Assembly (NCBI GenBank): GCA_958450365.1
Contig: CAUEEP010000881.1
Coordinates: forward strand, 496,001 to 560,000
DNA length: 64,000 nucleotides
Direction: 5' to 3'
Source of the DNA: Mesorhabditis belari
Taxonomy: Eukaryota > Nematoda > Chromadorea > Rhabditida > Rhabditidae
Shown: piece by piece, positions 492 through 60,414 of the stretch
Numbering within the stretch: the stretch's first letter is position 1
How the letters are laid out: each line of letters starts with the position of its first letter
The notes under the pieces: generated by a model
Databases searched by the model: none
What the model saw: only the letters and a program-made list of their open reading frames with translations
What the model was told of the DNA's origin: nothing
Made by a program: the position numbers and the translations under genes

Positions 492-2051
492 AGCTCTTCT
501 TTTTGTTCTTTCTTTATTTCAAACCTTTGCTTAGCCTTTAGTGCACTCCAGATGGAAATTTCCATGATCTAAATCCAAAGAAAAGGGGCTATTTGAGGCT
601 GAAAATGATTCGAGTGTCCGATCAAGTGGATTGGTGGATGAGTTTTAGAGAAATTGTGACCAAGATTGGCTATTTGGCTATTGTGCGTTCCAGGAAAGCG
701 AATCGAAATGTTTAAAGATCAATTCGTTTAAATTTAGCTACAATTTTGCTCGAAATCTTTAACGAATCTCGGCTTTGATGATTCAAAAAGGAAAACGTTT
801 TTGTCATCATTTCCCGACTAAATCCAAATCTTGTTCATTCAAAGAAAAATTTCTCCCATTTTCTCATTTCCCATTTCCGTACTCGTTTTTCTCATTTGTC
901 TATCGTTTTCTCAATTGATTAGCAATTTTTGGTACTTCGGTTTTGATCGGTTATTGCTAAATTGTTGCAATAACCGACCAAAACCTTCACTCTACTTCAC
1001 AACCCGTCAAAGCTTAAACCGAATAATGAACCGTTTACCTCATTATTTTGTACTTTTTGGTTAGAAATCCATAGAGATTCAACTCGGTTAAGCAAGAAGT
1101 TGACAACTTTTGACGGGTTGTGAAGTAGAGTGAAGTAGAGTGATCAGTCGATCGAAAATCGTTAACCGAGAAGTCTCGGATGGAGCTGCTTCACCGAGAT
1201 GAGTCTTTCTGGATGTATAAAGTATCCAATTTTTTTCAAATCTTTCATAATATCATTATTTTTACAATGTTAAATTGTTAAAAATCGTTAAAAAATCTCA
1301 AATTTCAATTTCAATACACTAAAATGTTTAAATTTATAAAAATTTAAAGCAAAATCTTCAGTTTCATCAATTTTTTTTATTTAAAATAAAGAAAATTTCA
1401 TTCAATTTACTTAATGATTAAAAGAGATTTCTCTTAAAAACCGCAAAAATGACTCAATTTTTCTATTGTTTAAAAAGAGAGAAACAAAATGGGAACGAGA
1501 AACGAATAGAGAAAGAAGACAAATGAGTGATTTGTCTGCTTTTCTCAATGTCCATGCTTTTCTCAATGCAATCCCCTTTCCACTAGTCATCCCACTCACT
1601 CCACTAGTCATTTCTCATTCATTCTACTTTTGTACCCTTCATTTTTCACACTTTAAAACATTCTACTTGAATAGATTGAGACAATTTCGGCAAGATTTCT
1701 TTCGATAAGATCATTTTTTTCTTTTTTTCTCTTTCAATAACTTCTATGCTATCCAGGTCAATTAAAAAGAAGGTTTTAAGTTTATATATTTATATGCTTT
1801 TTTTCAGTTGAATAGCGACAAAACAAAATCACAATAATTACCTGGGACATCACTCAAAATTCACCCAAAAGATAAATAGATACCTCAAGAATCACAGAGC
1901 AGTCAAATCAAGTGCCGAAATTGCGGTTTTAAATCTAGGTAAGGTGAGAATATCAAGAATATGAGGGGGTAAAATCTTCCATAATTTAACTCGAAGAAAC
2001 TGTGGAAGCTTTTAGAGGAGATGGAAAGTTCGGGTATGAGAAAAGGCCACC

Positions 2052-2928
2052 TGGATGGGGGATTCTAGGATGGGGGATTCTAGGATGGGGGATTCTAGGA
2101 TGGGGATTCTAGGATGGGGGATTCTAGGATGGGGATTCTAGGATGGGGGATTCTAGGATGGGGGATTCTAGGATGGGGGATTCTAGGATGGGGGATTCTA
2201 GGATGGGGGGATTCTAGGATGGGGGTATCCTAGGATGGGGGTATCCTAGGATGGGGGTATCCTAGGATGGGGGTATCCTAGGATGGGGGGTATCCTAGGA
2301 TGGGGGTATCCTAGGATGGGGGTATCCTAGGATGGGGGTATCCTAGGATGGGGGTATCCTAGGATGGGGGTATCCTAGGATGGGGGTATCCTAGGATGGG
2401 GGTATCCTAGGATGGGGGTATCCTAGGATGGGGGTATCCTAGGATGGGGGTATCCTAGGGATGGGGGTATCCTAGGATGGGGGTATCCTAGGATGGGGGT
2501 ATCCTAGGATGGGGGTATCCTAGGATGGGGGTATCCTAGGATGGGGGTATCCTAGGGATGGGGGTATCCTAGGATGGGGGTATCCTAGGATGGGGGTATC
2601 CTAGGATGGGGGTATCCTAGGATGGGGGTATCCTAGGATGGGGGTATCCTAGGATGGGGTATCCTAGGATGGGGGTATCCTAGGATGGGGGGTATCCTAG
2701 GATGGGGGTATCCCTAGGATGGGGGTATCCTAGGATGGGGGTATCCTAGGATGGGGGTATCCTAGGATGGGGGTATCCTAGGATGGGGGGTATCCTAGGA
2801 TGGGGGTATCCTAGGATGGGGGTATCCTAGGATGGGGGTATCCTAGGATGGGGGTATCCTAGGATGGGGGTATCCTAGGATGGGGGTATCCTAGGATGGG
2901 GGTATCCTAGGATGGGGGTATCCTCCAC
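2052..2928. repeat. 15-16 bp G-rich minisatellite
   Basis: About 55 head-to-tail units. The first dozen read GGATGGGGGATTCTA and the rest GGATGGGGGTATCCTA, so the array has two homogenised sub-blocks. The later unit contains the palindrome TATCCTAGGATA across the unit junction. At 2940-2985 a short inverted stretch of the same unit follows (ATACCCCCATCCTAGG). Confidence 0.95.
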
Positions 2929-3899
2929 TGTGTATAAAAGATACCCCAATCCTAGATACCCCCATCCTAGGAATGGGGTATCCTATGGAGGCCTAGAGAA
3001 CCGAATTCAAAGATACCAGAAAAAAAGGGGATCGGGATGATGATGCCTTTAACAATTTGAAAGCATTCCACTAACCGTTTAAAGCATTTAAAGCATTCCA
3101 CTAACCACCAATCGATGATAAGGCCGGCGTTGGTGTAACATTTCAAGACCAAATAGTTGCAATCAATCAAAAGTTTAGCAATTTCATTTCTAACTCGAAA
3201 ACTCTGGCTTAAATCCAACAATTCCCAATATTTGCAATATAAAACTAAAGCTTCTAGTAAATCTCTAATGGAGGTTTTTGATTTTTAATATAATCTCAAA
3301 GTTTTATAAGCTTTTGAGTAATCAAGTTTTGTTGAAAGATGAATCAAATAAAGTTTTTGATTGTTTAATTCATCAAAAAAACTTCATTTTAGTCAAAAAT
3401 TACTCCAAAATCGTTTATTTAACACAATTTTTATATAAAAATGATTAAAATGACGATTAGAATGATCAACTTTTAAAGAGCCAAAGAAAAATCAACTTCG
3501 AAAATGCATTAATCTTTTCCATTGAACTATTGAAGTCGAAAAAAAAGGAATTGGGAAGACAAAGGTTGAGGGAATCGGATCCGATTACAAAACAGACCTT
3601 TGGGTCTCTTCCTCAGACAATTTCTTTTCAAATATTTCCCCCCCACAAACTCTTTTCTTGTCCCTTGAAGGCTGAAATGGCCGAACTCTCAGTCACGCCT
3701 CTCTCTCCATTTTCCGATTGACATCAAAATCTGTTTCTCTTGCTTTGAAAAAAATTTTCTCACGCAGCTTTTCCGATTTGAAACATCATTGTGAAAAAGT
3801 TCTCTAGAAGTTGAACAATATTTTTTCAATTTTTCTAAAATCGCTGAATTTTATTGTCTAGTTGTTTATTGTGAGTTCCAGAAAGCTCAAAAAATTTCA

Positions 3900-4395
3900 A
3901 ATTTTCTGTTTTCTCTTAATTTTAACTCTTAATGATCAATGTGCTTTCCAGAACACTTAGAATTTTCCTCAGAAGTTCTTTCTCTTAATTTTACCTCTTA
4001 ACAATCAGTGTGCTTTCCAGAACGCTCAGAATTTCCCTCAGAAGTCTGTTTTCTCTTATTTTTACCGCTTAACGATCAGTGTGCGTTCCAGAACACTCAA
4101 AATTTCCCTCAGAAGTACTGTTTTCTCGTAATTTTAACTCTAAACGATCAGTGTGCTTTCCAGAACGCTCAGAATTTCCCTCAGAAGTCTGTTTTCTCTT
4201 ATTTTTAACTCTTAACGATCAGTGTGCTTTCCAGAACACTCAGAATTTCCCTCAGAAGTCTGTTTTCTCTTATTTTTAACTCTTAACGATCAGTGTGCTT
4301 TCCAGAACACTCAGAATTTCCCTCAGAAGTTCTCTCTCTTAATTTTAACTCTTAACGATCAGTGTGCCTTCCAGAACACTCAGAATTTCTCTTTT
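3900..4395. repeat. 71-bp tandem repeat carrying GTGCTTTCCAGA
   Basis: Six to seven units of about 71 bp. Each has a CTTAACGATCAGTGTG segment, the 12-mer GTG(C)NNTCCAGA and a CAGAATTTCCCTCAGAAGT segment. The 12-mers start at 3941, 4010, 4081, 4153, 4224, 4295 and 4364. Overlapping plus-strand ORFs are a by-product of the period and are not called as genes. Confidence 0.9.
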
Positions 4396-6176: not shown

Positions 6177-6693
6177 CAATCAATCAATCAAATCCAATTC
6201 CATTTCGTTTCCCTCACCTGTCTTGTTGAGCAAAGATATACCAAGAAATCCCACGGTGTCTCCAAGCTGTTAATGTAGGAATTTGGACCACCGTAACTGA
6301 AAACCAAATTTGAATCCTATCATTTCTACCCGTCAACTCACACATCCAACAAAACAGGATACGTTTCAGTTGGATCGAACTTTGGCGGTCGCATGATTCC
6401 CACGTGAGCTTCTGAAATCAATTTCATATTTCAATACCATTTTTCACACTCACCAATCATTGAGACCAACATAACTTTCTCGAAAGTGATAATCGGCTCA
6501 TCAAAAGCTAAACGAGGTGCCTCGAAGCCTCTGAGCTGATGAACTAAACTCTTTTCTATCATTTTTCCAACTTCTGGATGTCACTAGAAACTTTAAAATC
6601 AAAATTTTCCACTTAACTTCTCGAAATTCCTTTACTGTACAACTTACACTCGTTATTATTGGCTTTATTCATGAGGTAAAGCCGCCCATTGAC
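6177..6693 (-). pseudogene. inverted partial copy of the DPP gene (exons 18-21)
   Basis: On the minus strand this segment is nearly identical to 12883-13400. It contains most of exon 18, exons 19 and 20 and exon 21, with their introns. The copy starts inside exon 18 and stops inside the intron after exon 21, and it has no promoter or continuing exons. It is therefore a dead duplicate, separated from the parent by about 6.2 kb in inverted orientation. High identity, introns included, points to a recent DNA-level duplication rather than retroposition. Confidence 0.92.
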
Positions 6694-7930: not shown

Positions 7931-10900
7931 ATGGCCGAGAAAAATGTGAGTCCTGAAAGGTATCCAATCAATTCGAATTTTCAGCAATGGACATGTTGCG
8001 CTTGGAGAGCGATCCTTGTCTCCGCTTTTGCTTTAGGCGTTCTTGTTTGCATCGCGATCTCCGTTGTTTTGCTGTTAACACAGAAACGTTAGTGAAAACA
8101 AAAGTTTAACCAAAACAACCAAATTCCAGCGGTAAACTTGGGCGAAGTCGGTGATGCGGCCGCGTGGGACACAGGGAATGTGTCGATTCGACGGAAACCT
8201 GCTCATTATCGGTTCTTTAGGTCTTGTGACATCCAGAATAAAACTTTAGACCCTTCACATTCGAGGATTTGCTCTCAAATAAGCAACACGTTCGATCAAT
8301 GTATTCAGTGAAGTGGTTGGCAGATGATAGTTTGATCATCGCAGCCGAGCCAACGATTCCATTAGAAGAGGTGACATCCAGATAGTCTGAAAATAAATAA
8401 GAAAAGCTCAGGATGGTGCCTCGTTGAATATAATTCGATCGAACAATTTCTCGGAGGAGTTGTGGGTGCCCGACTCTGAGTTTATCGCTGGTTTTACAGG
8501 TTTTTGATTCAATTTTTTGATTGGGAAGGTAATTTCAACAATTTTAAGGTGATTTATCAGGTGAACGCGTGAAATTCTCTCCATCAGGCAAATATGTAGC
8601 GTTGAGCAAGTTGCTTTCTCACGTAAGTATTGAAAAAGTGACTTAGATGACTTCTTAAAGCACTAACTTTTATAAAAACTATAATTCTAGTACAGTAATC
8701 TTCTAGATTCATTACAGTAATTCAAAATTTTTTTTTAATTTTTCAGGGTTTTCGTCATTCTGAAGATTCTCTCTACCAAATCGCTAAAATCAGTGATGGA
8801 AAATTATCGTAATTTGGCTTTAATTATTGTAAATTTGAGTATATTCTAGGAAATATACATTTGTTGGTCCAAAAGGAACAGGTCTCGAAGCAATCTCGAG
8901 TTTTCGATGGAATCCGAATCCAGAAAAACACGATTTTGTAAGTTTATTAACTGTTTTAGAAAGAATTGTCAAATCGAAACTTTCGAAAATCAAAACAAAA
9001 GCGAAAACTTTCGATTAATCCATCAGATCAGCCTCAAACCATTCTAGAATCTATCTTTCCTTTCAGATTTTTGTCTCCGATTTTAACGTCTACTACCAGA
9101 GTGACCCTGGAGCACCAGGATCGGCGATCGCTTTGTCTGAGAATGGAAAATCTTTCTATCGATATGGTCTTGCCGATTGGCTGTATGAGGGTACGGTGAT
9201 ATCCAGAAAGTCCAATACTTTAACTGATTTTGTCACTTATTGCTTAAAATCAGCGAAAACCCTTCTAAAACCCGAGCGTGTAATCCAGATCACCCAAAAA
9301 CATGTTCAAAGCTCGTAAAAACCTTTCCAAATTCCGTGCTGACATCCATATTGTCAAAAACTCATCAAAAAATTCAGAAGAGATCTCTCCAAGTGCGACA
9401 TTTTGGTCGGATCGGGGTGAGATGATTGCTTACATTCGTTATGATGATCAATTCGTTCACAAAGTTTACGTTCCCAAATATTTCAACACTCGACAATACA
9501 CAGAGTGAGTTAAAGAATGATTAATAAAAGGTAAAAGAGAGATCTAAAAATTTAGTTATTTGGAAGTGCCGTATCCAAAAGCTGGTGTACAGAATCAACC
9601 TGAAGTCACCTTATTTTTATGGAATGTTAAAGAAAACAAAAAAGTCGTTATTTCACCGCCCGATGAGCTGATGGCGAGGAATTTGTGAGTGTTTAGGGTT
9701 TTGTAAATGAAATTCAAGATTTCTTTAGATCTTATTACATTTTCTCAAACAATTTCATTACGGTGGCAATGAATGGGACAAGAGAAGAGAAATTGTTGAC
9801 TGTTTGGTCGGATAGAGAGCAAATGAATATTTATATGACACTTTGCGATGTCGAGGATTGTGTTTTGGTCAGTGCTATGGCTTTAAGGAACAGAGAGCAT
9901 TGAACAGAGAGCATTCAAGCAAAAGCATTGAAGCACAGGGGGCAAAAGCATTGAAGAAACAAAGCTTTTTAAATTCTTCTTTTGATTTGATTGGAAAACT
10001 TTAACTTGAAAAGTCTTCTCCTTGAAATTTCAATCTTACCATCAACGTTATTCGTCCGAAATCCTTGATCTTGACTTGATTTTGCTCTTTTCCAAAACTC
10101 TGGCAACCCTTTTACCCAATCACAATCTTTACCAATCCACTTATACCAAAAAACTTCTTTAATCATTTCCAGACTTACTCTCAAAACTACGAGATTCACG
10201 ATCGACAACTTTGGAGTGAACCTGAAGATTTCCAAGTAGATTCATTTCTCTAACTGAAAATCGGAAATTTTCTAGAAAATCATCGCCTCCCCAAGTGGCT
10301 TCTTTGTAGTTTTGCCCCATCAATACACTGATGGCAATATCTATCAACATATCGCACACATTCGCGTACAGGTCAGAAAACTAGCTTTGATTTCATTAGA
10401 CAGAGTGCACTCTGTCCAATGAAATCAAGCTAGTTTTAATGAAATCAAGTTAATTCTAATGCAATCAAGCTAGTTCTAATGAAATCAAGCTAGTTCTAAT
10501 GCAATCAAGCTAGTTTTAATGAAATCAAGCTAATTCTAATGCAATCAAGCTAGTTCTAATCAAAACAGAATTGTCGCAACAAGATAAAGTTCTGAAAGGC
10601 AGATAAGAGGAAAAAAGAAAAATGAAAATGAAATATCAAATTCTAATCGATCGCCATTAGCATTTGAGAAGGCTCGCAGGCGTTTTGGGAAGGCGTCAAT
10701 GGTGATCAAAAAGACTGTATCGAGCTCTTCCCACGCTTTCAACAGTGATTTCTTCAAGCTTTTGATGTTTTTGTGGCGTTTTGAACAAGCTTTGGCTACA
10801 GAACCGACCACACTGAAGAATCCATTGAGTTGAGGTCTGGATAGCTAGGCCATTCAGAAAAAGAAAAGAAGTCCGGGAAATCGTTTTGACAGAACTCTTG

Positions 10901-13900
10901 GACTTTCTTGGATTTGTGAGCCGGTGCATCATCTTGCTAATAAGTCCAAATGCTATTTCCAAAATGTTTACGAGCCTAGAGCAAGAGTTCATCCTTGAGA
11001 AGAGTCAAGTTTTCGGTCAAGTACTTTGGGCAACCAATATGAGTAGAGTCTTTCCTGTCGCAGTAATGCAGCCATCTTCGAGACTCCGAGAAACCAATTC
11101 AGTTCAGATCTGGCCTATACTCAAGGATTTTGCTTGTAAAGTTTGTAAAGAAGGCCTTTAACACTAAATATCTTTTATCTGTGAACAAGATATTGTGATG
11201 ATCGATTCCATTGACTCAATAATTGATCTACTCTCAATTCTCGCTTGTTTTAGCGGCATTCGAAAGAAGTTGAGTAAGTTTGAGTTTATTTTTGAGGATC
11301 CGAAGCAATGAAGTGCTTGAAATCATCATCTTCTTTGTCATTTGCCTTGCTCTTCCGAGTTCGGTCCCCCACTCGCTTGATGTTTGTCTTTGTGACAACA
11401 GTTAGGCGTCTACCGCTTCTTCGTGCATCAGCAGTTGTTCTCGTAGCTTTGTAGCATTGTATAGTGTAGAAAATGACACTTCGGTTGACTTTAAGATGCT
11501 TATGAATCCTCGTTTGGTAGCTGAGACTCCTCCTTTGTGGCTGAGACTCCTCGTTTGTGGCTGAGACTCCTCGTTTGTGGCTGAGACTCCTCGTTTGTGG
11601 CTGAGACTCCTCGTTTGTGGCTGAGACTCCTCGTTTGTGGCCGAGACTCCTCGTTTGGTAGCTGAGACTCCTCCTTTGTGGCTGAGACTCCTCGTTTGTG
11701 GCTGAGACTCCTCGTTTGTGGCTGAGACTCCTCGTTTGTGGCTGAGACTCCTCGTTTGTGGCTGAGACTCCTCGTTTGTGGCTGAGACTCCTCGTTTGTG
11801 GCCGAGACTCCTCGTTTGGTAGCTGAGACTCCTCCTTTGTGGCTGAGACTCCTCGTTTGTGGCTGAGACTCCTCGTTTGTGGCTGAGACTCCTCGTTTGT
11901 GGCTGAGACCCCCTCGTTTGTGGCTGAGGCTCCTCGTTGTGGCTGGGACTCCTCTTTGTGGCCGAGACTCCTCGTTTGTGGCTGAGACTCCTCGTTTGTG
12001 GCTGAGACTCCTCGTTTGTGGCTGAGACTCCTCGTTTGTGGCCGAGACTCCTCGTTTGGTAGCTGAGACTCCTCCTTTGTGGCTGAGACTCCTCGTTTGT
12101 GGCTGAGACTCCTCGTTTTGTGGCTGAGACTCCTCGTTTGTGGCTGAGACTCCTCGTTTGTGGCTGAGACTCCTTGTTTGTGCAATTCGATGATCGATTG
12201 TCAATGGGGTTTCTTCAGCTATTCTAAAAAAAATAACACATTTTATATAAAAATTTTTCAATTATATTCCAAATATAATAAAAAGACCAAAAGAAAAACT
12301 AGAAATGAAGCTTAAATCAAGGAGTTATTTTCCTTGGACGTGGTGCCTTGCTGCGACAATTATGATGCCCTGTATATAGCTAATTCTATAGATATGGCTG
12401 AATTTCAGGACGATGGCTCAGGACGAATGACGACTTTTCACGGTGGGACATATGATGTGATCAAGCTACACGGATATGATCAAGAAAAGGACACTTTGTA
12501 AGTGAAATCAATAGAATGAGTTCCAGATTGAAGAAATAACTCGAAAAGAAATATAGATTTTACGAGTCATCTGGTGGTGGGATCGCTTTCAAGCGATTGT
12601 TCCGAGTTCGAAGTGCTAGCACGAGATTGGCTCAGGTAGGGAGGGGAAATTATTTAAAAAGAGCTAATCCTGGATGTCATGAGAAAAGATTTTCAAAGAA
12701 TTATGTGAGGAAAATGAAAATGAAATTTTAGATTCAATGCATTAGCTGCTCGGTTCCAAATTGTGATTCAGCCACGATATCGGTAGGGTTTTCAAGTAAT
12801 CATTCAATTTTTGCCGATTTCAGGTCTCTCCACGGGGTAAACGTGTGGCTTTGACGTGTAATCGAGCTTTTGACAATGGGCGGCTTTACCTCATGAATAC
12901 AGCCAATAATAACGAGTGTAAGTTGTACAGTAAAGGAATTTCGAGAAGTTAAGTGGAAAATTTTGATTTTAAAGTTTCTAGTGACATCCAGAAGTTGGAA
13001 AAATGATAGAAAAGAGTTTAGTTCATCAGCTCAGAGGCTTCGAGGCACCTCGTTTAGCTTTTGATGAGCCGATTATCACTTTCGAGAAAGTTATGTTGGC
13101 CTCAAAGATTGGTGAGTGTGAAAAATGGTATTGAAATGTGAAATTGATTTCAGAAGCTCACGTGGGAATCATGCGACCGCCAAAGTTCGATCCAACTGAA
13201 ACGTATCCCGTTTTGTTGGATGTGTGAGTTGACGGGTAGAAATGATAGGATTCAAATTTTGTTTTCAGTTACGGTGGTCCAAATTCCTACATTAACAGCT
13301 TGGAGACACCGTGGGATTTCTTGGTATATCTTTGCTCAACAAGACAGGTGAGGGAAAAGAAATCGAATGGGATTTGATTGATTGACTTTTAAGATTCATT
13401 GGTTTCTGATTTGATCCTGGCTTTATTTTAAAGTTTACATTGATTGGCTTTATTTTAAAGTTTACATTGATAAAACTTTGATATAAGCTTAGAAAAGTAT
13501 ATTGTTTTGGGTCAAGTTTTAAAATTTACTGTATTGGTTTGAGAAGTTTTTCAAACATTGGTTCAAGGTCAAGTTTTGATAAAAATCGATTTCTAGATGA
13601 TTGTTGTCTACATCGATGGCCGAGGTTCAAAACATCGTGGCTGGGATGTGAAGGGACCGATTCGGAATTCGTTTGGAGGACCTGAAGTCGATGATCAAAT
13701 TGATGGGATGAGGTGAGTGGATTGGTTCAATTGCCTAAAACAAAACGATCTAATCAACTTGCCTAATCAATTTGCCTAATAAATTTGCTTAATCAATTTC
13801 CCAATTTCACTTGCACAATCTTCTTTTCAAGCAAAAATTCTCATTTTTTTTTCAGAAAAATCATTGACAAGTACCCGTGGATGAACAAAAAAGCGGTGGC

Positions 13901-14879
13901 TGTTTTGGGATGGGTTTGTTTAGGAAATGTTCCCTTAATTCACAAAATCTCAGTCTTACGGTGGTTTCCTCTCAACGCATATTGGGGTGAAAGACAATGG
14001 GAACGTTTTTCGGTGTTCTCTCGCCGTCGCTCCGGTCTCCGATTTTCTGCTATATGGTAAGTGGATGATAGGTTACAGTTTAACTATTTTAAGCTTAAAA
14101 TTATCCAATCTGGATGTCACTGCATAAATCCCGGGGCACAATTCATTCCCACAACCATTTTAGATTCCGCTTACACCGAGCGTTATATGGGTCTACCGAC
14201 GGAAAATCCCCAAGGATACAATGTACGTTTTTAAGCAGTTTATATCAAAGTGTGAGCTCCAGGATTAACTCTAAAATGAAAAACAAATTCATAGAGGAGA
14301 TTTTTCAGAGCTCTCGCCTCACCGACAAGATCACCAAGATGAGAAATGTGCACTATCTATTGGCGCATGGAAGTGCAGATGGTATTTGAATAAAAGGAAA
14401 GGTTTAAATGTTTCAAAATCAATTTCCAGACAACGTCCACTATCACAATGCGGCTTTATTGGCGGGTGCTCTTCAGGAGAACAATATTCCATTCACTCAA
14501 CTCGTTCGTTTCTAGAGATTTGTCTAGAGCTTAGAGTGTTGTCTAGAGCTTGCTTAGAGCTTTGTCTAGAGCTTAGAGTGTTGTCTAGAGCTTAGAGCTT
14601 TGTCTGCCAGGCCTAGCTAGACTAAAGGCTTTGCTTTGAACTTTGAAAAGTGATAAAACCTTAGTCTTCTAATTTTCCAGGTCTACACAAATCAGCTTTG
14701 TCATATCGATTAGAGCTTTGTCTGCCTGGCCTTGCTTTGAACTTGGAAAATTGATAAAAACCTTCATTTTCCAGGTCTACACAAATCAGGATCATTCAAT
14801 GGTGAATGTCCGTCCACATCTCTACAAAGAAATCACAAATTTCCTCGATTCAAAATGTTTTTCCGATCAATTTTTATAG
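7931..14879 (+). CDS. dipeptidyl peptidase IV-like membrane serine protease (S9B), 28 exons
   Basis: A type II membrane serine exopeptidase that should remove X-Pro/X-Ala dipeptides from peptide N-termini. Exons: 7931-7945, 7985-8087, 8130-8211, 8250-8370, 8412-8499, 8561-8622, 8747-8808, 8850-8937, 9067-9190, 9378-9504, 9556-9684, 9729-9867, 10173-10235, 10276-10371, 12409-12497, 12557-12635, 12732-12782, 12824-12929, 12992-13111, 13154-13223, 13269-13347, 13597-13712, 13856-13913, 13954-14056, 14164-14222, 14309-14381, 14430-14503, 14775-14879. All phases agree, giving 826 residues. A signal anchor lies at about 13-37, then a beta-propeller with the substrate-binding double Glu (DWLYEEE, 249-250), then the alpha/beta hydrolase domain: VYGGP, GWSYGG (Ser690), HGSADD (Asp767), QDHSM (His799). 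The triad is complete. The end of exon 3 is uncertain (8211 or 8220) because the intron is very short. Intron 14 carries a Tc1-like element. AATAAA occurs at 15050. It is probably the dpf-2 orthologue, judged by order with the EGR gene; dpf-1 is the alternative. Confidence 0.93.
10381..10434. repeat. 54-bp near-perfect palindrome in DPP intron 14
   Basis: CTAGCTTTGATTTCATTAGA is followed by ACAGAGTGCACTCTGT and the complementary arm. The palindrome lies at the start of intron 14, just after the exon 14 donor. Confidence 0.85.
10425..10565. repeat. 21-bp tandem repeat in DPP intron 14
   Basis: About seven units of GAAATCAAGCTAGTTCTAAT(G) continue from one arm of the preceding palindrome. They seem to have grown out of that arm. 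Confidence 0.85.
10566..12376 (-). mobile_element. decayed Tc1/mariner-like transposon in DPP intron 14
   Basis: Read on the minus strand, this is a broken Tc1-type transposase. An N-terminal helix-turn-helix stretch (HLKVNRSV...) with a GRR linker lies near 11350-11510. A core fragment around 10860-11100 contains 'TGKTLL' and a QDDAPAH-like block split across frames. A C-terminal tail with LLKAWEELD lies at 10620-10790. Several frameshifts and stops make it inactive. The 5' terminal sequence ends at 12376 (GCCCTGTA read on plus); the other end is not recognisable. The reading frame is interrupted by the 20-bp minisatellite at 11507-12185. It is antisense to the host gene and spliced out with intron 14. 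Confidence 0.8.
11507..12185. repeat. 20-bp minisatellite inside the Tc1-like element
   Basis: About 34 units of CTGAGACTCCTCGTTTGTGG with few variants (GGTAG, CCTTTG). A higher-order pattern shows the TTTGGTAGCTGAGACTCCTCC variant recurring every 7-12 units. Because 20 is not a multiple of three, the array encodes the same peptide repeat (RGVSATNEESQPQTRSLSHK) in all three minus frames, which produces long spurious ORFs. The related copy at 16979-17032 retains only two or three units. Confidence 0.93.
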
Positions 14880-16260: not shown

Positions 16261-16263
16261 CCC

Positions 16264-17545: not shown

Positions 17546-17743
17546 AAGAATTCAGGGTGAGACATTTATTTGTGTATTAGTGTAAGTTTAGATTAAAGGC
17601 GGCAAATAAGAAATGGATACTCCTTTTAAAGAAGAAGAAAGAAGAGGTAAGTGACTTTTTGTATATTAGGCTGTCCAGAAAGCCATTTTTTTTTCCTTTT
17701 CGTACTTTCGTTTTAAACCAATAAATGCACGAATTAACCTATT

Positions 17744-28112: not shown

Positions 28113-39433
<11,321 letters not shown>

Positions 39434-43985: not shown

Positions 43986-44703
43986 AAATCGCTTGACATC
44001 GATAGAATAACCAAATTTATGCGCAATTTTCTGTATCTCGGAAAATTTTTGGTGGTATCATAGAGCCTCTTTGCTCTAGTCCTTTGCCCAGCTTTTCCCA
44101 TTTTTCTTTCTTTTTTTTTTTCTGTAATTTGCCGTATACTGCCACAAACGCTTGAATAAAGATTTCCCGGTGTGAGAGAACGCAAGAAAAAACCAAATTG
44201 GAATGCACAGAAACGATTTTGTTTATCATCTGAGAATTAGACGCTCATTTTTTTTTGGCGGAAATTGAGGGGGTTCGAGTGTAATGTATTTTGAGGGGAT
44301 TTTCAGGGAAAGGATTGAACAAAAACAGCTTTGACGGCCAAGCTGGAGCACACAAAAGAGGATGAGAAGGAGAAATGGGGGGAAATGACTGGATGGGAAA
44401 AAAAATTGAGAGGGGAGGGGTAGGTGGAGGTGAGTGATGGAGGAGAGGGAGGCGAAGGAGAAGGACGGGCAAGAGATAGCCCTCTGGAAATTGCTTCATT
44501 TTGGTCAATCCCATTTTGATTTGCAAATATTGATCTTGAAATATTATAGAAATTATCAAATTCTAGGAATTGGCTATCTTTTTGGCTGAATTTCTTCCCA
44601 ACAACAGTTATAAAAATCTTCGAATTCTTGAAAATTGTTTTTTTCCACATTTTTCTTTCCCATTCTTCCATGTGCCTTCCAGATCCCATATTTTTGATTT
44701 CAG

Positions 44704-45727
44704 ATGGTGCAAGAAGTGGCCTTTAGGGCCTACCATCCGGTGAATTTGCCCCGGTCGCGTTCTGTCGAACGGGTTCCCTACCGAGTCGGTACCCTCACAA
44801 GGTAAGATTTCAATAGTGTGCCCTCCAGGATAGCTGTATTGGGTATCAAAATGAAATATTAAACACTCCATGATATCCTATCTTCTCAAAAATCATTTCA
44901 GAGTCTCCTCGGTTCCGTGTGTTCACACACTCCGCGTTAGCAAGGACACCTATCGCGGGAGTGGTCTGCACAAGTATCGCCGAGACTACGACCTGGTTTG
45001 GCTAGACCGAATCCGCGAAAATCAAACTTTAAAACATTCAGACAGACGATTGGGAGAAAGACCGTGTCAATTTCTATCAACCATTCCATTTCTCGACTTA
45101 TCGATACCAAGCTCGTCGCCAACTCCTCACCGATCCAATTCCCAACTCGCTCGGTTTTCAATACCCCGGTTTCTTGTAAGAAATTGGCTATTATTTGAGA
45201 TATCAATTTCTTTTTAGTGGTCGTTATAAGTTTTATTACGATTGGCTAAATCCAACAATGTGGCGTAAACATCGTGATCCAAACTACGACAGACCACTTT
45301 GGAATCATTGGCGGCCTTGGCAATATAATAGTGTAAGCTATAAAGGAAGATGCTAAAGGGGAGATCGATCTTTTTAGAAATCGATCAAAGATGGTATTGA
45401 TCTTTACCGGAAAGGTATCATTCCATTCGATGTTCTTGACAAGAAATGGATTGAGCCAACAGCATTGGCGAGAAAGGGAAAAGACTGGTTCGATGTGTAC
45501 ACACCAGCTCGTAAGTGTTAAGAAAGGAAATCAAAGGTCGATTTAGCAGACTTTCAATCTCCCATAGTCTTTATAGGGTCAGTGCTGAGCTTGTAGGCTT
45601 GTAGTGACCAACTACGAGCCACTGTACTCCGAGATTACCATAGAGAATGAGACAAGCTTTACTATTCTTCAAATTTCCAGCTCGTTACGGTGCTCACCGT
45701 TACTTCTTCACCGGACAAGTGTATTAA
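44704..45727 (+). CDS. paralogous Tyr/Trp-rich protein, unrecognised, 6 exons
   Basis: Exons 44704-44801, 44902-44995, 45042-45175, 45218-45332, 45378-45510 and 45681-45727 give 206 residues in consistent phase. It shares with the upstream gene the RSRSV N-terminal motif, an RDYDL segment ending exactly at an exon boundary, Tyr/Trp/Arg-rich composition (FYYDWLNPTMWRKHRDPNYD) and a related segment (KSIKDGIDLYRKGI here, ERSMKRGLTMYKEG upstream). An ancient tandem duplication is the simplest reading. The ATG directly follows a strong acceptor (TTTTTGATTTCAG), so the mRNA is probably trans-spliced or has a 5' UTR intron. The 718-bp gap from the upstream stop leaves both an operon and an independent promoter possible. 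Confidence 0.82.
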
Positions 45728-46471
45728 AAAAAGCGAAACTCTTGCAAGTCTCAAATTTGTCTCTTTTTTTTTCTTCTTTTTCTTTTCTGTACATGATAAA
45801 GTTTATCGCAAATTTATTGCAAAAAGAACCGATTTAGCAAAAAGGACTTGTAAATTGATTCACATTTTTGTTTTCGCTACCCGAATTGATAGAAAATGAA
45901 TGAAAATCGATGCAAAAAAAACTGTACAAAACCCGTAAATAAGTAGAGAATCGAGTTGATGATCAATAGTCGCCTTTTTGATTAGCAAGAGCAAATCTCA
46001 GTGTCATTTGGCTAAAATCTGGAATGCACAAAAGAATTTGGTTTGGTTGGAAAGGTCGAAACTCGCTGTTTCCACGACGCTACTTTGTACAGTATAGTAA
46101 ATTTTATCGTAGCCAGATAATTGTAGCCTCAAAACAACCAGTGCTATCCAGTTTGGTTATAAAAATAAATATTTTCTCGTTTCTAGACATTCTAGTGCTT
46201 AAAATTCCAACGATAACATAATCTACAATGACAGTACAGTAGAAGTTATCATAGACGATCAACGATAGTTCTATCTTACTACGTGCTATCCAGCTTAATC
46301 AAAAACTAACTTTTTTAGATAATTTCTAGCTTCTATAAGATAATTTACTCGAGACATCGATCTTTCCAACCTTTCCAACCTTTACCAAGCCTATCACACT
46401 TAAAATCCACACATTAAACTACAAGAAGAAGAAAATGAAAGTGATAGAAGCTAACCGATTGCCCCAAAAGA
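45728..46471. other. intergenic space between converging genes
   Basis: Contains the 3' UTRs of the Tyr/Trp-rich gene (+) and of the receptor gene (-). An AATAAA on plus lies at 46164, rather far from the stop. A strict TCTGGAATGCAC is at 46018, with loose copies in the opposite orientation at about 46138 and 46280. Confidence 0.55.
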
Positions 46472-49400: not shown

Positions 49401-52400
49401 GAATGATTTTATTTGATTGAAATTGATTTATTGAATGATTTTATTGATTGAAATGGATTTATTGAATGATTTTATTGATTGAAATGGATTTATTGAATGA
49501 TTTTATTGATTGAAATGGATTTATTGAATGATTTTATTGATTGAAATTGGTTTCTTGAATGATTCTATTTTCAAATGAAATATTATTTTCAATGATTTTG
49601 TTGATTAAAATTGGAAGTTGATTTCTTGAATGATTCTAATTTCAAATGAAATGATATTCTCAATGATTCTGTTGATTGGAATTGGAAATTGATTTCTTGA
49701 ACAACTCTATTTTCAAATAAAATGTTATTCTCAATGATTCTGTTGATAGAAATTAGAAATTGATTTTATTGAATGATTCTATTTTCAAATAAAATGTTAT
49801 TCTCAATGATTTTGTTGATTGGAATTGAAAATTCATTTCTTAAACAATTCTATTTTCAAATAAAATGTTATTCTCAATGATTTCCTTAATATTAGAGCTT
49901 TCTTAAACTTTATAAACCTGTAAAAACATGACAGTCATCCCATAAATCTTCTTTAACCATTTCTTATTCTGCCAATCCTCAGTGCAAACAAAGAAATCGC
50001 AAGGAAGACGAATGTAAGTGTACTAAATGGGAGAATTATTTGAAATTGTTGAAATTATTGAAATTATTGAAATTGACAATTTTTAACTTTAAGAAATTGA
50101 TACCTTCATATGATATCCATATGGTAAAACAAGAAGTAGAGAAGTGCACCAAATACATGAAACAATCGCCACACATTTCTGAAAACAATTCAAATTTGAG
50201 CTTTTTCTTAGAGTTTAAAGGGAATTTCAATCAAAATCCACTTCCAACTTTTCCCTGGATCAAGATCAAAGCTTTTTCTCTAGATTTTAGACTTTGTATT
50301 GTTTAAATGAGAAGTTTTTTCAGCGTTCTGGAATGCACAGAGACTATAAATGTTTAAAGATATTCAAAATTAAAGATAGAAAAAAAATTTGTTTTTCCGA
50401 CTTCAAGACCTGAGTTTCAGCTAGGGCTTAAGCTTAATATTTTGCTTTGCATTTCCTTTCTTAACAATCTAATCTCAAATTTTTGCAATCAATATAGAAG
50501 GTTGACGTAGATAGAGGTATTTTTATCATCTCAAAGTGTTCCATTCCCCCATGAAGGGGTGTGGGAATTCGCCTCAATTCCCTCCACTTTTCTTTTCCCT
50601 TTTTCTTTCTTAAACCAATCCTCACCTTTTCCTCAATTTTTTCGAAAAGACTTTCATTCAAATGCTACTTTTTGTTGATCATTGGTCTTCACGAAATGAA
50701 CTTATTGATTGGAAACATGTGGGATTTAAGAAGAGAAGCTTTGGAGGAAAAAGAGGAAGAGAAAGAGAGGAAAAGAAAGAGGAAGAGAAAGAAAGAAGGG
50801 AAGAAGAGGAAGAGAAAGAGAGGAAAAGAAAGGGGAAAAGAAAGAGGAAGAAAAAGAAAGAGAGGAAGAAGAGGAAGAGAAAGAGAGGAAAAGAAAGAGA
50901 AAGAGGAAGAGAAAGAAAAGGAAGGAGATCTTCTAGAAAGACTATTAAAAATAAAAATCTTCAAACCGTTATGCTAACTCGATCATTCAATTGAGCAATT
51001 GTTGAATTCTGAACGATCACGAAATATCGATCGACAGCAATAGCCATCAGGGTGAGAGTGGAGATGAAAATCGAGGCACCCTGGAAAAGTTCTGAAGTCA
51101 AGAAGTACTGACTCTAAGATCTTGAATTAAGACCTTTGCAACAATGATTTCTAAGAGAAAACTGGACACTGATCTAAATTGGATGTCACACGAACGTTTC
51201 CTGCTAAATTTGTCTTTTATTTGATCAAATTTGTCAAACTCCCAAAACTCCACAACTTTTCTCGCTCTTGGATTCTTTTTTTTTATGTTTTCTCTTTTCT
51301 TTTACCCGTCTAAATATCTAAACTAGGCAACCGTTAGCTTTTCCTCCTTTTCCCTCTTTCTTTTTTCCATTTTTTTAGACAATTTCATCCCTCCGGAAAG
51401 CCAAACAAGCCCCGCAATAACGCCAAAATTCTCTCGGCTTCCTTTTTCCAGAATTTTTGAAAAGAAACGTGAAATCTCTTGCCGAAGATCTCAATTGAAC
51501 GGAAGTTAACAGCACTCCCCGCGATTGCATTCTGCATTTGCAAAATTTGACCGCACCTGGACTCGAATCTGAGCTCAAGCCCGTATTGGAACCGTTATGG
51601 ATTTAAAAAGAACCGTATTGGAACCGTAATGGAACCGTATTGGAACCGTATTGGAAACCGCGCTCGCCGAACCGCGCCGCCGGAAACCGCGCCGCCTGGA
51701 AACCGCGCCGCCTGGACGCCGCCTGGAAGCGCTCGCCTGGAAACCGCGCCGCCTGGAAACGCGCTCGCCTGGAAACCGCGCTCGCCTGGAAACCGCGCCG
51801 CCTGAAACGGCTCGCCTGGAAACCGCGCTCGCCTGGAAACCGCGCTCGCCTGGAAACCGCGCTCGCCTGGAAACCGCGCTCGCCTGGAAACCGCGCTCGC
51901 CTGGAAACCGCGCTCGCCTGGAAACCGCGCTCGCCTGGAAACCGCGCTCGCCTGGAAACCGCGCTCGCCTGGAAACCGCGCTCGCCTGGAAACCGCGCTC
52001 AGAACCACTTGACTAATATAAAACTTTGATATCTTTGCTTGAAATTCTCAGAAAACCTTTTCTGTGTTCCAGTTTGAAACTTGGTTCTGTTTAAAATCGA
52101 TTAGTTGCTGTTTAAAGCGCTCAAACCCCTCATCGTATTTGTTTGATCAAATTCTCGTTTGAGTTCGTTGTTATTGGTTTCCCGGGTGAAATATCTATTT
52201 CTGCTAATTGGATAGCATGGAGGCGTTTTGATTGTTAAAATCACCTGGAATAACGGTAGCCCGTGACACAGCCAACCGCCCCAGATCCAATGACCGACAT
52301 AGGTGTAAACGGGCGTCAACCAGAGGGACCTGAAATTAGCTGAGGTCGATTGTCAAGTGAACATAAAATCTCGGGAATGGTTGTTGTGGAAGGCACAGAA

Positions 52401-53148
52401 AAAGTTGATCATTGAATTTCTGAGTTAATCTTAAATTTTTCGACTTTTAACTGATCTGTGAGCTTATCTTCTTAAAAAAACTCGATCTAGGAAGTTTTAT
52501 GAAATGAAATGTTTAAAATTGTCTAATCTGGAGTGCACTCAGTTGATTGGGGATTGTTGGGAGAGGGAAATAGATGAGGAAACAATTTGAGTAAATTATT
52601 CGGAATGGATTCTGTTGAAACTCACGTAAAATTGACGAGAAGATCAGAGATGGCAAGATTGCAGATGAAAATATTTGTGACTGAGTGCATTCTCCGGTTA
52701 TTCGTGACTACATAGACGACAAGGAGATTCCCAAAAACAGCCACCATAAAAACAAGACAGTAGAGACTGAAGAGAACGACGCGAACCCATAAAACATCAA
52801 GAGGATTCTGCAAAAAACTTTACTGTATCTACTTTTTCTCAATACTATAGTTTAATAAGAGATTACTGTAGCTAGGGAAGCTCGATTTCATTCTATAAAC
52901 CGTCCTTAGTCAGAGTCAGAGTTAGTCCAAAGTTTAAAAAATCCAAAAATCTTTCAAGTCAAAATTTTCTTAATTAAAAAGATTCCAATTAACTATATGT
53001 ATCCCAGATCGCTAGAATTTTCAGTTTTTTCCATTGGTTACCAATTTTTAAAGCATTTTTCAGCTTCAATCTCTGCTTTACTACTTACCCCCTTTATTTT
53101 ACATGCTTCTTCATATGTTCTCGATATCGTCGTTATATTCACATCCAT
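46472..53148 (-). CDS. rhodopsin-type neuropeptide receptor (NPY/NPF-like), 11 exons
   Basis: A plasma-membrane G protein-coupled receptor. Minus-strand exons: 53148-53089, 52807-52626, 52329-52245, 51080-50967, 50178-50104, 50022-49918, 49382-49311, 49271-49150, 47131-46997, 46940-46784, 46762-46472. Phases agree, giving 465 residues. Class A hallmarks are all present: GN in TM1 (47), LAISD in TM2 (71-75), a Cys at the top of TM3 (102), DRY (126-128), Trp in TM4 (157), Cys in extracellular loop 2 (180 or 185), CWLP in TM6 (265-268) and NPILY in TM7 (305-309). The RHHSV-like intracellular loop 1 (NRRMHSVTN) and [13 protein letters not shown] are typical of NPY/NPF/tachykinin-like receptors. 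The closest nematode relatives are likely the npr group, but the member cannot be fixed here. The tail is long and Lys/Glu-rich. Introns 3 and 8 are large and repeat-filled. An acceptor-like CTTTCAG ends one base before the ATG. Confidence 0.92.
47330..47900. mobile_element. fold-back element with tRNA-like sequence in each arm (receptor intron 8)
   Basis: 47330-47545 and 47670-47895 are imperfect inverted repeats. Each arm carries, read inward-facing, AAGATGGCTAAGCG then CTAGTGATTAGTGCAATTG, a tRNA A-box-like stretch, and further in AGTTCAATTCC, which matches a B box. The cloverleaf is incomplete, so these are not functional tRNA genes. They are best read as tRNA-derived SINE-like modules captured in a fold-back element. 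Confidence 0.7.
48426..48662. repeat. ~120-bp tandem duplication in receptor intron 8
   Basis: GTAACACTTGAAATTTCTAG and TTAAGCTCTCGGGCAGTCGG occur in both halves with about 90% identity by eye. Confidence 0.88.
49390..49890. repeat. ~33-bp and ~60-bp repeats in receptor intron 6
   Basis: The first part consists of GAATGATTTTATTGATTGAA units of about 33 bp. The second part has longer units containing CTATTTTCAAATAAAATGTT and TCTCAATGATTCTGTTGATT. Confidence 0.88.
50730..50935. repeat. purine (GA/GAA) tract in receptor intron 4
   Basis: About 200 bp of GAGAAAGAGAGGAAAAGAAA-type purine sequence on the plus strand. It gives long Lys/Glu/Arg ORFs on plus and Ser/Phe/Leu ORFs on minus that are not genes. 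It could form triplex DNA. Confidence 0.93.
51590..52000. repeat. GC-rich 17-bp minisatellite in receptor intron 3
   Basis: The array starts with GGAACCGTATTGGAACCGTA units at 51590-51655. It then changes to GC-rich GAAACCGCGCTCGCCTG units (17 bp, with a GAAACCGCGCCGCCTG variant) up to 52000. It is far more GC-rich than anything else in the window. The first unit type is the same as the separate array at 58105-58292. Confidence 0.95.
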
Positions 53149-58104: not shown

Positions 58105-58292
58105 ATACGGAACCGTATTGGAACCGTATTGGAACCGTATTAGAACCATATTAGAACTTAATAGGAACCGTATTGGAACCGTATTGGAACCGTATTGGAA
58201 CCGTATTGGAACCGTATTGGAACCGTATTGGAACCGTATTGGAACCGTATTAGAACCGTATTGGAACCGTATTAGAACCGTATTGGAACCGT
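58105..58292. repeat. 12-bp GGAACCGTATT(G/A) minisatellite
   Basis: About 15 units. The same unit begins the GC-rich array at 51590, 6.5 kb away, so one array seeded the other or both derive from one element. Confidence 0.95.
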
Positions 58293-58936: not shown

Positions 58937-59205
58937 ACCGTAAACACTGTAATAGTACCCCACTCCCATAATGACGGTGCGGAGTGTTGCGTAGTCTAGC
59001 TTTGAACGAGTTTTTCTCGACATTGGTTTATGCTACAATGCGCGTTTAGGTATCAAAAAATAGCCCTGAATTTCAGCTTTCATTTAATACTTAAACGAAC
59101 ACTGTAGCATAAATGGGTGGCGAGAAAAATGCCTATAAAGTTAGACTACGCAATGCTCCGACCGTCATTATCGGACCGAGGGGCTACTATTAAAGGTATT
59201 ACGAT
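58937..59205. mobile_element. TACCGTAAAC-ended MITE, copy 1
   Basis: It starts TACCGTAAACACTGTAATAG and ends with a degenerate complement near 59205. It contains the block TCTAGCTTTGAACGAGTTTT and, in inverted form, its relative near 59140. The two halves are imperfect inverted repeats around a central AATAGCCCTGAATTTCAGCT. Confidence 0.85.
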
Positions 59206-59252
59206 ATGCTTTTCTTAGTTTAGCTTAACCCTTATCTACTATAATTTAAACA

Positions 59253-59523
59253 TACCGTAAACACTGTAATAGTACCCCATCCCCATAATGACAATGCGGA
59301 GTGTCGTGTAGTCTAGCTTTGAACGAGTTTTTCTCGACTATGGTTTATGCTACAATGTTCGTTTTGATATCAAAAAATAGCCCTAAATTTCAGCTATTTT
59401 TTGATACCAAAGACGCATTTTTTGAAAGTACGGGCGCTTTAAAAGAAACGAAATACTAAAAACCTTTTGCGACTACGCGACTGTACGAGGGAGGGTGGGG
59501 GGTACTATTACAGTATTTACGGT
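59253..59523. mobile_element. TACCGTAAAC-ended MITE, copy 2
   Basis: Same left half as the preceding copy, but the right half differs. It shares GCGACTGTACGAGG and the TACTATTACAGTATTTACGG end with the element at 17744-18075. The two neighbouring copies are in the same orientation, about 50 bp apart. Confidence 0.87.
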
Positions 59524-60414
59524 AAATGAATTCGACAATAAAAGGGATTTGTGATTGAAGTTTCGAAAGTTTTGAGTATTTTGTCAAAATGAAAGTTTAA
59601 ATCCCGCCTTGGGTTCAATGGAATAAGCATAAAAATGAGAAAAGAAAGAAAGGAGGTGATCTTTCCAAACTCATTTCTATTTCTTCCTTTCGGGAAAACC
59701 GCAATATAAACGAAACGAGGTGGTGGAGATGAAAATGAGAAAGAAAAAAAAAGGAGGAAACACGGCTGTCTGCTTTACGAGTCAAATAAATGAGTCAAAA
59801 AGGGAAAAGGTGAGAAAGATTTTAGAATTTTTAGGAATCCTGGAAGTCACTGGGGTAAAAGATCAAATTTTGAAGAGATTGGAGGCCTTTGAGAAGCTTC
59901 GTTCATTTCGAGCATCTTGGAGTATGTCAAAAAGGAAATCAAGTTAAAATTTTAAAGTTTTCGGTAATCCTGGATATCATTGGAGTAAAGGGGGAGATTC
60001 TAGAAGCGATTTGATGACTTTGAAATGATGACTTCTTGATGAGATGTCAATTGTTTTTGACTTAAGAAATTAGTCATTTTTGAACATTCTTTACATGTAG
60101 TGTAATTTACTGAAATCTTATGGATATGTTCAAATTTCCAAATCGAATCATGCCGATTATGGAGAGGCATTTGAATGAAGCCAATGAAAACACGTGAATG
60201 AGTCAAAAAAAAGACAGAGACGAAGACAGAGACGATCGTCACCAAATCGTCTCTCTCTTTTTGGTAGTTTTAGCAATAATAGATTGAGAATTTTTCGTTA
60301 TTTGTAAGTTCTGGATGTCACAGTAGGGATTGGTAAAAAGAGATGAGCAAAAGAAGAAGAAGAAAAAAAATATTCTCAATTGTGGTAATTGTGGGGGAAA
60401 TCAGGGCTGAATTG

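What the first reader, a model, noticed from the sequence alone, without database searches (positions are those of the whole stretch)
541..60321. A dispersed bipartite motif (A/T box + TTCTGGANNKCAC) about once per kb on both strands
Seen: 24 separate strict matches to TCTGGANNNCAC plus seven in one array. With nine fixed bases, about 0.5 is expected by chance over both strands of 64 kb. It lies mostly in introns and intergenic DNA, in either orientation relative to the gene, usually with a TTTTTGAAAT-like box 8-15 nt upstream. The positions after GGA are variable but prefer WTG, WGT or AAG. Known: C. elegans type I 21U/piRNA loci are tiny autonomous units in introns and intergenic DNA on both strands, each with an A/T-rich upstream part and a fixed core (CTGTTTCA). 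Inference: this may be the equivalent small-RNA promoter in this species with a diverged core, or a site for a chromosome-wide protein (X dosage compensation or meiotic pairing).
Basis: partly seen in the sequence, partly recalled or inferred. Interest (0 to 1): 0.88.

Follow-up and report, generated by a model that had tools for sequence, protein, structure and literature searches.

The report
Phased nucleosome-sized DNA box arrays
This worm-like genome carries thousands of copies of a short conserved DNA box which, in the copies examined, tends to sit in a nucleosome-length stretch with a 10-base A/T rhythm and often repeats every ~143 bases, so it looks more like a DNA-written docking site for chromosome machinery (perhaps centromere or meiotic pairing) than a small-RNA promoter.

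Summary
The motif is real: 32 strict copies against 0.23 expected; 8,530 genome-wide against 135 for the pattern read backwards. It is not simply dispersed. 36 of 64 strong window boxes have a partner 138-147 bp away, and the distance is enriched even where flanks are unrelated; two such stretches are single-copy. The same box sits once per monomer in many unrelated ~143-bp tandem repeats. Its nine fixed bases are conserved (0 of 450 differ between haplotypes; 2.0% against 20.6% flank divergence in 78 pairs of array units). In 85 mutually dissimilar sites A/T content oscillates at about 10.4 bp, phase-locked to the box, from about -66 to +50 bp of its centre. I read the unit as a DNA-encoded positioned nucleosome carrying a protein-binding box. 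The sites cluster in domains; 15 large contigs (48.8 Mb) had none of 127 sampled places. The piRNA reading is not supported, though not excluded. A structural site (centromere or pairing-centre type) is the best guess; no chromatin data exist to decide. The species was not identified.

The parts
3871..4375 (-). 8-box tandem run at ~71 bp (half of the usual ~143 bp) spacing
541..694 (-). box pair 541/683, 142 bp apart, flanks not similar
   Evidence: p 0.84
8226..8382 (-). box pair 8226/8371, 145 bp apart, identical cores, flanks not significantly similar
   Evidence: p 0.11
9196..9350 (-). box pair 9196/9339, 143 bp apart, flanks not similar; the box at 9278 lies between
   Evidence: p 0.84
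20997..21595 (+). run of five boxes 20997, 21140, 21283, 21427, 21584 (spacings 143, 143, 144, 157)
23846..24144 (-). three-box run 23846, 23991, 24133 (145, 142), copy of the 33-kb family
25596..25753 (+). box pair 25596/25742, 146 bp apart, flanks not significantly similar
   Evidence: p 0.11
33099..33819 (-). six-box run 33099 to 33808 (140, 142, 144, 142, 141)
35264..35420 (+). box pair 35264/35409, 145 bp apart, flanks not similar
   Evidence: p 0.65
39963..40446 (.). box cluster 39969(-), 40109(+), 40251(+), 40395(-), 40435(-) with spacings 140, 142, 144, 40 in mixed orientation; the 601-bp stretch 39900-40500 matched only itself and the other haplotype
44197..44829 (.). two box pairs, 44197/44342 (+, 145) and 44672/44818 (-, 146), in a stretch that matched only itself and the other haplotype
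43861..43872 (-). single box, matrix score 29.2 (second highest listed in the window)
52385..52538 (+). box pair 52385/52527, 142 bp apart, flanks not similar
   Evidence: p 0.50
60310..60321 (+). single box with the highest matrix score listed in the window (29.3)
6573..6584 (+). strict box in a 516-bp segment (6180-6695) with a 98% identical inverted copy
12981..12992 (-). strict box in the inverted copy (12870-13385) of the segment at 6180-6695
14109..14263 (.). boxes 14109(+) and 14252(-), opposite orientation, 143 bp apart (second box score 11.7)
28625..28636 (+). single strict box
30555..30566 (+). single strict box
36777..36788 (+). single strict box
46018..46029 (+). strict box; 46141(-) and 46283(-), 142 bp apart, follow with 1 mismatch each
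50327..50338 (+). single strict box

Best explanation
Each copy is one unit of a DNA-encoded chromatin particle. Shown from sequence: (1) a box, about WYCTGGANNKCAC, with weaker preferences from -10 to +22; (2) conservation of its fixed bases but not of the NNK middle or the spacer; (3) A/T maxima about every 10.4 bp, phase-locked to the box, over about 116 bp, followed by about 27 unphased bp; (4) units repeated at ~143 bp (sometimes 71), with the spacing enriched also where the flanks share no similarity; (5) uneven, domain-like clustering in the genome sample. Inferred: the ~116 bp is DNA wrapped on a histone core. The phase fits a dyad at the box centre; the extent fits better one about one turn 5' of it, which would put the box near superhelix location +1. 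A sequence-specific protein reads the box on or beside that nucleosome. Because canonical 147-bp cores cannot sit side by side every 143 bp, the particle may be short-wrapped, as CENP-A nucleosomes are (recalled). Runs of units would thus form phased chromatin that recruits chromosome-segregation or meiotic pairing machinery (centromere-like or pairing-centre-like). Which of the two is not shown.
For: Excess over chance: 32 against 0.23; 8,530 against 135 genome-wide. Flank clusters: 45 among 134 strict sites. Spacing: among 417 same-strand pairs 40-620 bp apart, 102 have dissimilar flanks; of these 22 lie at 138-147 bp, 5 at 100-137 and 7 at 148-190; in the window 11 of 50, about 0.9 expected if uniform. 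36 of 64 strong window boxes have a partner (similar or not) at 138-147 bp, against 9 at 148-157 and 3, 0, 2 and 8 of 64 in four more distant bins. Opposite-strand pairs at 138-147: 5 of 44 against a jitter-null mean of 0.71 (largest of 500 draws 6), p 0.002; dissimilar divergent pairs at 131, 140-141 and 151-153 are 10 of 24. Single-copy DNA: two of two stretches searched matched only themselves and the other haplotype. Conservation: 0 of 450 fixed bases differ at 50 sites between haplotypes, 4 of 150 in NNK; background 399 of 41,132. Array units found by their flanks alone: fixed bases / flanks / NNK differ by 2.0 / 20.6 / 20.5% (78 pairs), 2.5 / 14.8 / 13.3% (128), 1.4 / 8.7 / 3.8% (131). 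Rotational phase: on 85 mutually dissimilar sites, outside the matrix span, the in-phase component has t 10.9 (75 of 85 positive) upstream and t 9.9 (69 of 85) downstream, quadrature not different from zero, upstream 72-120 control about zero. Fits over 12-60 bp give a best period of 10.4 on both sides; at 10.3 bp the maximum falls 4.9 bp (modulo the period) from the box centre on both sides, and 4.8-5.2 in window/other and strong/weak subsets. The signal ends near -66 and +50 and comes back, about half as strong, from +75 to +80 on. 43 sites with and 42 without a 143-bp partner show it alike. Domains.
Against: No protein, chromatin or genetic data. Nematodes are generally described as holocentric (PMC9071541, passages), and a holocentromere element should not be missing from 48.8 Mb of large contigs; that speaks against a general centromere. 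Much of the spacing comes with tandem similarity (108 of 130 neighbour pairs at 136-150 bp have flanks with p not above 0.05). The haplotype test alone is modest (about 4.4 changes expected at the background rate). The period is not sharply resolved: in a 100-bp WW spectrum power was raised at several periods (upstream 8 to 10.5 and 11.5 to 13, downstream 8 to 9, 10 to 10.5 and 12 to 13), and downstream fits reaching to 72 bp peak at 11.8 or 8.5. The ranges were set after seeing the extent. An excess of YRNT at +46 to +48 is compatible with a promoter. The phased stretch is not symmetric about the box centre. Convergent pairs show no spacing peak.
Confidence: 0.55

Rival explanations
1. Type-I-like piRNA promoters with a diverged core: each box drives an autonomous 21U-type gene with a start ~42-46 nt downstream.
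For: Thousands of sites on both strands, clustered, conserved motif with variable surroundings; YRNT at +46 to +48 in 38.8% of 85 sites against a mean of 17.7%, sd 6.8, seen in the window and the other loci alike. In C. elegans and other species the motif lies 42 nt from the 21U site (PMC6436959, passages).
Against: Boxes are phased at ~143 bp. The downstream signal is one of a series of A/T maxima about 10 bp apart, present upstream too. Array units show no clear second conserved block at +46 to +52 (identity 0.71-0.80, flank level about 0.70-0.79). Canonical core not enriched. Four U2 upstream regions lack the box. piRNAs are reported lost in nematodes outside clade V (PMC9203780, abstract in a listing); the clade of this species is unknown.
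Confidence: 0.15
2. A repeat superfamily's own recognition site: a recombinase, transposase or rolling-circle machinery needs the box to amplify 143-bp units, with no host function.
For: Many units are tandem arrays or family copies; box-directed satellite rearrangement was proposed for Meloidogyne (PMC3694981, passages); CENP-B_N-type domains occur in the genome in several copies (24 matches).
Against: Two stretches with phased boxes matched only the two haplotypes; fixed bases do not differ between haplotypes; the spacing is enriched among pairs with dissimilar flanks; a mobile-element site does not by itself explain the 10-bp A/T phase.
Confidence: 0.2
3. C. [quoted passage not shown]
For: 12-base motif in kind, clustered in regional domains; known proteins bind 12-base motifs at terminal segments (PMC9071541, passages).
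Against: The same box with both K variants occurs within one domain (window 45 G and 29 T among 79 boxes) and on many contigs, unlike several chromosome-specific motifs; the protein family was not searched; chromosome positions are unknown; no nucleosome-scale phasing is recalled for that system.
Confidence: 0.15
4. Periodic A/T clusters (PATC-like DNA, recalled) with a chance word in phase.
For: 10-bp A/T periodicity is a known nematode feature (recalled, no call).
Against: The word itself is about 60 times over its reversed control, the phase is locked to it and stops after ~66 and ~50 bp, and 24 control sites of a reversed 9-base piece of the core show no significant phase (p 0.85 and 0.14).
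Confidence: 0.05

Closest known systems
Meloidogyne tandem repeats sharing a 19-bp box, associated with CenH3 (Despot-Slade 2021; paper not held; described in PMC9673304 and PMC11538461 passages)
   Same: Short dispersed arrays of divergent repeats sharing one conserved box in a nematode.
   Different: Box letters could not be compared. Here the genome has TTAGGC repeats, reported as not detected in Meloidogyne assemblies (PMC12643312 passage); the boxes cluster in domains, occur also in single-copy DNA, and are phase-locked to a ~10-bp A/T pattern.
Rice CentO satellite (rotational phasing of cenH3 nucleosomes; Zhang 2013, seen only as cited in PMC8997354 passages)
   Same: Nucleosome-length unit with ~10-bp A/T periodicity.
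   Different: CentO is one satellite family; here unrelated sequences share the phase and a short invariant box. cenH3 not tested.
Human alpha-satellite CENP-B box / Meloidogyne CENP-B box-like motif (PMC7333888, PMC3694981 passages)
   Same: Short box in nucleosome-sized monomers.
   Different: The human box lies mostly outside the entry/exit site of the CENP-A nucleosome (PMC7333888 passage); here the box lies near the middle of the phased stretch. Letters differ from the CENP-B box (recalled).
C. elegans meiotic pairing centres (PMC9071541 passages)
   Same: 12-base motif clustered in chromosome domains.
   Different: Four related proteins, each for certain chromosome ends there; one motif here; ~143-bp spacing not known there (recalled).
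C. elegans type I piRNA promoter (PMC6436959 passages)
   Same: Thousands of small units on both strands in clusters.
   Different: No GTTTC core, no shown transcripts, phased units.

Membership tests
Box-bearing centromeric satellites (CENP-B box / Meloidogyne 19-bp box type) | Short box conserved among otherwise divergent repeat monomers | tested here: met
Box-bearing centromeric satellites (CENP-B box / Meloidogyne 19-bp box type) | CenH3/CENP-A occupancy | not testable with these tools
   no chromatin data
Box-bearing centromeric satellites (CENP-B box / Meloidogyne 19-bp box type) | Distribution along whole holocentric chromosomes (holocentromere type) | tested here: not met
   none of 127 collapsed sample places on 15 large contigs (48.8 Mb); two of the 15 (C543, C570) carried one dropped row each of a dispersed family. 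Whether this species is holocentric was not tested.
Box-bearing centromeric satellites (CENP-B box / Meloidogyne 19-bp box type) | Same box letters as the Meloidogyne 19-bp box | not tested
   paper not held
Rotationally phased nucleosome satellites (CentO type) | ~10-bp A/T periodicity in a nucleosome-length unit | tested here: met
   with other periods raised too
Rotationally phased nucleosome satellites (CentO type) | Mapped nucleosome phasing | not testable with these tools
   no MNase data
C. elegans-type pairing centre | Short motif clustered in a chromosome domain | tested here: met
C. elegans-type pairing centre | One terminal domain per chromosome | tested here: inconclusive
   714 contigs, with haplotype duplicates; clusters towards a contig end on C548 and C701, single sites near an end on C704 and C712, but spread over C708 and C688
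C. elegans-type pairing centre | ZIM/HIM-8 zinc-finger protein | not tested
   no search made
Type I piRNA promoter | GTTTC-type core | tested here: not met
   the box has no such core; the canonical core is not enriched in the genome
Type I piRNA promoter | Initiator at a fixed distance | tested here: inconclusive
Type I piRNA promoter | 21U small RNAs | not testable with these tools
   no reads
DNA transposon end (IR/DR type, recalled) | Copies of box plus flanks elsewhere in the genome | tested here: not met
   only the two haplotype copies for two of two stretches searched; other window boxes do have family copies

The most novel reading that the evidence does not exclude
This nematode writes a histone particle into DNA: a ~116-bp rotationally phased wrap with an invariant protein-binding box near its dyad, repeated every ~143 bp head-to-tail or back-to-back in helical steps, and concentrated in a limited set of domains that serve as sequence-defined kinetic or pairing regions on chromosomes assumed to be holocentric. 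It would be a modular version of a point centromere.
Probability: 0.25. Interest if true: 0.93.

Novelty: new variant of a known kind. Interest (0 to 1): 0.8.

Why it matters
Conserved boxes in divergent satellites and 10-bp phased satellites are each known, but here mutually dissimilar sequences, single-copy DNA included, share both the box and the rotational phase. That makes the unit separable from repeat ancestry. It gives a testable DNA code for where a special nucleosome sits, in a phylum whose centromeres are usually thought sequence-independent (recalled), and a handle (the box) for pulling out the protein that reads it.

Tried and rejected
piRNA/SNAPc reading: U2 upstream regions, canonical core count, initiator tests; kept as a rival. 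A general TTTTTGAAAT upstream box: rejected. Transposon ends: rejected for two stretches. Chromosome-wide X or dosage site: clustering instead, but chromosomes were not assigned. G or T subtype per domain: both in the window. Species identification failed: Rfam SSU and COX1 searches did not complete, and a transposase search gave five relatives, one labelled 'transposase', without organisms. Set aside: the clustering used too high a threshold because its null held repeats; the jitter null looked too narrow, so random-position nulls were used.

Rows dropped: 14 of 42 rows, copies of one dispersed family (TCTGGACATCAC or TCTGGACTTCAC followed by TCGAT), were left out of the density count; the first 100 places listed were not used there either. 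Contig lengths were asked for a chosen part of the 714 contigs. The 20 stretches were chosen mostly because they held hits, so these loci overstate density; the window is the less biased sample. In the haplotype tests 41 of the 56 kb fetched from C546 passed my alignment filter (at least 93% identity, about 150 bases, collinear). In the distance histograms pairs with similar flanks were left out; in its partner counts they were kept.

Full report
WHAT WAS CLAIMED AND WHAT IS THERE. The strict motif occurs 32 times in the window against 0.23 expected and, as TCTGGANNKCAC, 4,187 + 4,343 times in the 207.6-Mb genome against 64 + 71 for the pattern read backwards. The assembly holds both haplotypes of this region: contig C546 matches the window at 93-99.5% over 41 kb, out of 56 kb fetched.

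THE BOX. In 134 strict sites from 21 sequences (262,634 bases), flank similarity leaves 45 clusters. Over these, beyond the fixed letters, there are preferences for A/T at -9, -8 and -1, T or G at -5, A at +15, G at +16 and T at +20/+21. A matrix from -10 to +22 finds 270 sites above score 12 against 4 in reversed sequence.

IT OFTEN COMES IN PHASED UNITS. In fetched loci, unrelated tandem families with monomers mostly of 141-146 bp carry one box per monomer. Same-strand distances peak at 140-149 bp (122 pairs), with multiples near 285, 430 and 575. The window array at 3871-4375 runs at 71 bp, half of that. The distance is enriched also without sequence similarity. Of 417 same-strand pairs, 102 have dissimilar flanks, and 22 of these lie at 138-147 bp, against 5 at 100-137 and 7 at 148-190. 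In the window 36 of 64 strong boxes have a partner at 138-147 bp; four distant bins of equal width gave 3, 0, 2 and 8, and the adjacent bin 148-157 gave 9. Opposite-strand pairs share it: 5 of 44 against a jitter-null mean of 0.71, p 0.002, although the largest null draw was 6. Dissimilar divergent pairs stand at 131, 140, 141, 151 and 153 bp (10 of 24), which looks like helical steps; convergent pairs show no such peak. Two stretches with such pairs, 39900-40500 and 44100-44950, matched only themselves and the other haplotype, so these boxes are not in a repeat that the search could see.

IT IS CONSERVED. Between haplotypes none of 450 fixed bases differ at 50 sites found with at most one mismatch in either haplotype, while 4 of 150 NNK bases do; the aligned background is 399 of 41,132 (0.97%), and shuffled motifs treated the same way give 2.1% (135 pooled sites). 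Array units were also compared after finding homologues by flanks only: 339 pairs from 133 strict queries, in 11 clusters. At 75-82% flank identity (78 pairs) fixed bases differ by 2.0%, NNK by 20.5% and flanks by 20.6%; at 82-88% (128 pairs) 2.5, 13.3 and 14.8%; at 88-95% (131 pairs) 1.4, 3.8 and 8.7%; two pairs fall below 75%. 81.5% of the homologous units (weighted) keep the strict box. The query side was chosen for a strict box, which lowers the neutral expectation by up to half.

IT IS ROTATIONALLY PHASED. On 85 mutually dissimilar sites (38 in the window, 47 elsewhere) A/T content peaks at about -51, -41, -30, -20, -9, +20, +31, +42 and +51 from the first T; at positions picked from earlier column listings it is 0.79 in phase against 0.54-0.59 in antiphase, alike in both subsets. 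Separate fits over 12-60 bp on the two sides both give a best period of 10.4 bp; at 10.3 bp the maximum is 4.9 bp (modulo the period) from the box centre on both sides, and none of 400 random sets reaches the amplitude. Restricted to positions outside the matrix, 75 of 85 sites are positive upstream (t 10.9) and 69 of 85 downstream (t 9.9), with quadrature not different from zero; 24 control sites of a reversed core piece show nothing significant. The signal ends near 66 bp upstream and 50 bp downstream and returns, weaker, from about 75-80 bp downstream, where the next unit's upstream side would begin. So 143 bp divides into about 116 phased and 27 unphased bp. Against a clean single period: a WW spectrum over ~100 bp is raised at several periods, and downstream fits reaching 72 bp do not peak at 10 bp, as expected if the signal stops at 50. 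A/T content is also higher near the box than at mid-spacer (0.648 against 0.580, z 6.5). A 10-bp A/T periodicity favours rotational nucleosome positioning in satellites (PMC8997354 passages); that a histone core is really there is my inference.

WHERE. Five pattern searches gave 205 rows; 14 of one dispersed family were dropped, and 191 were collapsed to 127 places on 46 of 714 contigs. Fifteen contigs of 2.28 to 4.72 Mb, 48.8 Mb together, have none (about 30 expected from the mean rate; two of them, C543 and C570, carried one dropped row each), whereas C688, C694, C701, C708, C548 and C553 (17.0 Mb) have 59 against 10.4 expected. On C548 the seven places lie at 3.27-3.72 Mb of 3.96; on C701 the eight at 1.61-1.99 of 2.01. 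Several contig pairs look like haplotypes of the same domain from the listings (C553/C427, C569/C159, C701/C77, C708/C642), but only C546/C661 was aligned.

READING. The data fit a box read by a sequence-specific protein on a DNA-encoded nucleosome-sized particle, used in limited domains. Kinetochore-type and pairing-type functions both fit; the clustering speaks against a general holocentromere. The piRNA reading is weakened by phasing, by core identity, by lack of the box upstream of four U2 genes and by absence of a clear second conserved block in array units. The YRNT excess is best seen as part of the A/T rhythm, though that is not proven.

LITERATURE. Searched: in an open-access library only. 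I found no report of this box in the listings and the passages read; the Meloidogyne 19-bp box paper itself was not held, so its letters were not compared. Papers were seen as passages only (PMC9673304, PMC3694981, PMC11538461, PMC12643312, PMC13370393, PMC6436959, PMC9071541, PMC8455136, PMC8997354, PMC7333888) or as an abstract in a listing (PMC9203780).

Noticed in passing
window 6180-6695 and 12870-13385: Inverted copies, 98% identical over 516 bp, each with a strict box.
   Followed up: no
window 12131-12702 and 16981-17552: Direct copies, 98.4% identical over 572 bp, both holding part of a 20-bp repeat.
   Followed up: no
window 2053-2924: 16-bp tandem repeat GGATGGGGGTATCCTA, about 55 copies.
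   Followed up: no
window 53586-53952: 28-bp tandem repeat with a palindromic ATCGGACGTCCGAT part, 13 copies.
   Followed up: no
window 51610-51656 and 58109-58292: The same 11-bp repeat (GGAACCGTATT) in two separate arrays.
   Followed up: no
window 16259-16915: Start of a Tc1/mariner-like transposase (helix-turn-helix matches, all below curated cut-offs; five distant relatives, one labelled transposase).
   Followed up: partly
G000 contigs C641, C286, C521, C598: U2 snRNA genes in tandem arrays of about 1.5-kb units, plus two copies on C544 and C668 with different upstream DNA.
   Followed up: partly
G000, many contigs: Numerous TTAGGC stretches far from contig ends.
   Followed up: no
G000: 24 CENP-B_N-type matches, several in open frames of the same length (239 aa), suggesting a pogo/Tc5-like element.
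   Followed up: no
NNK inside the box: The three middle bases vary about as much as the flanks in most comparisons, less in the closest array units (3.8 against 8.7%); the reason they are free is unknown.
   Followed up: partly
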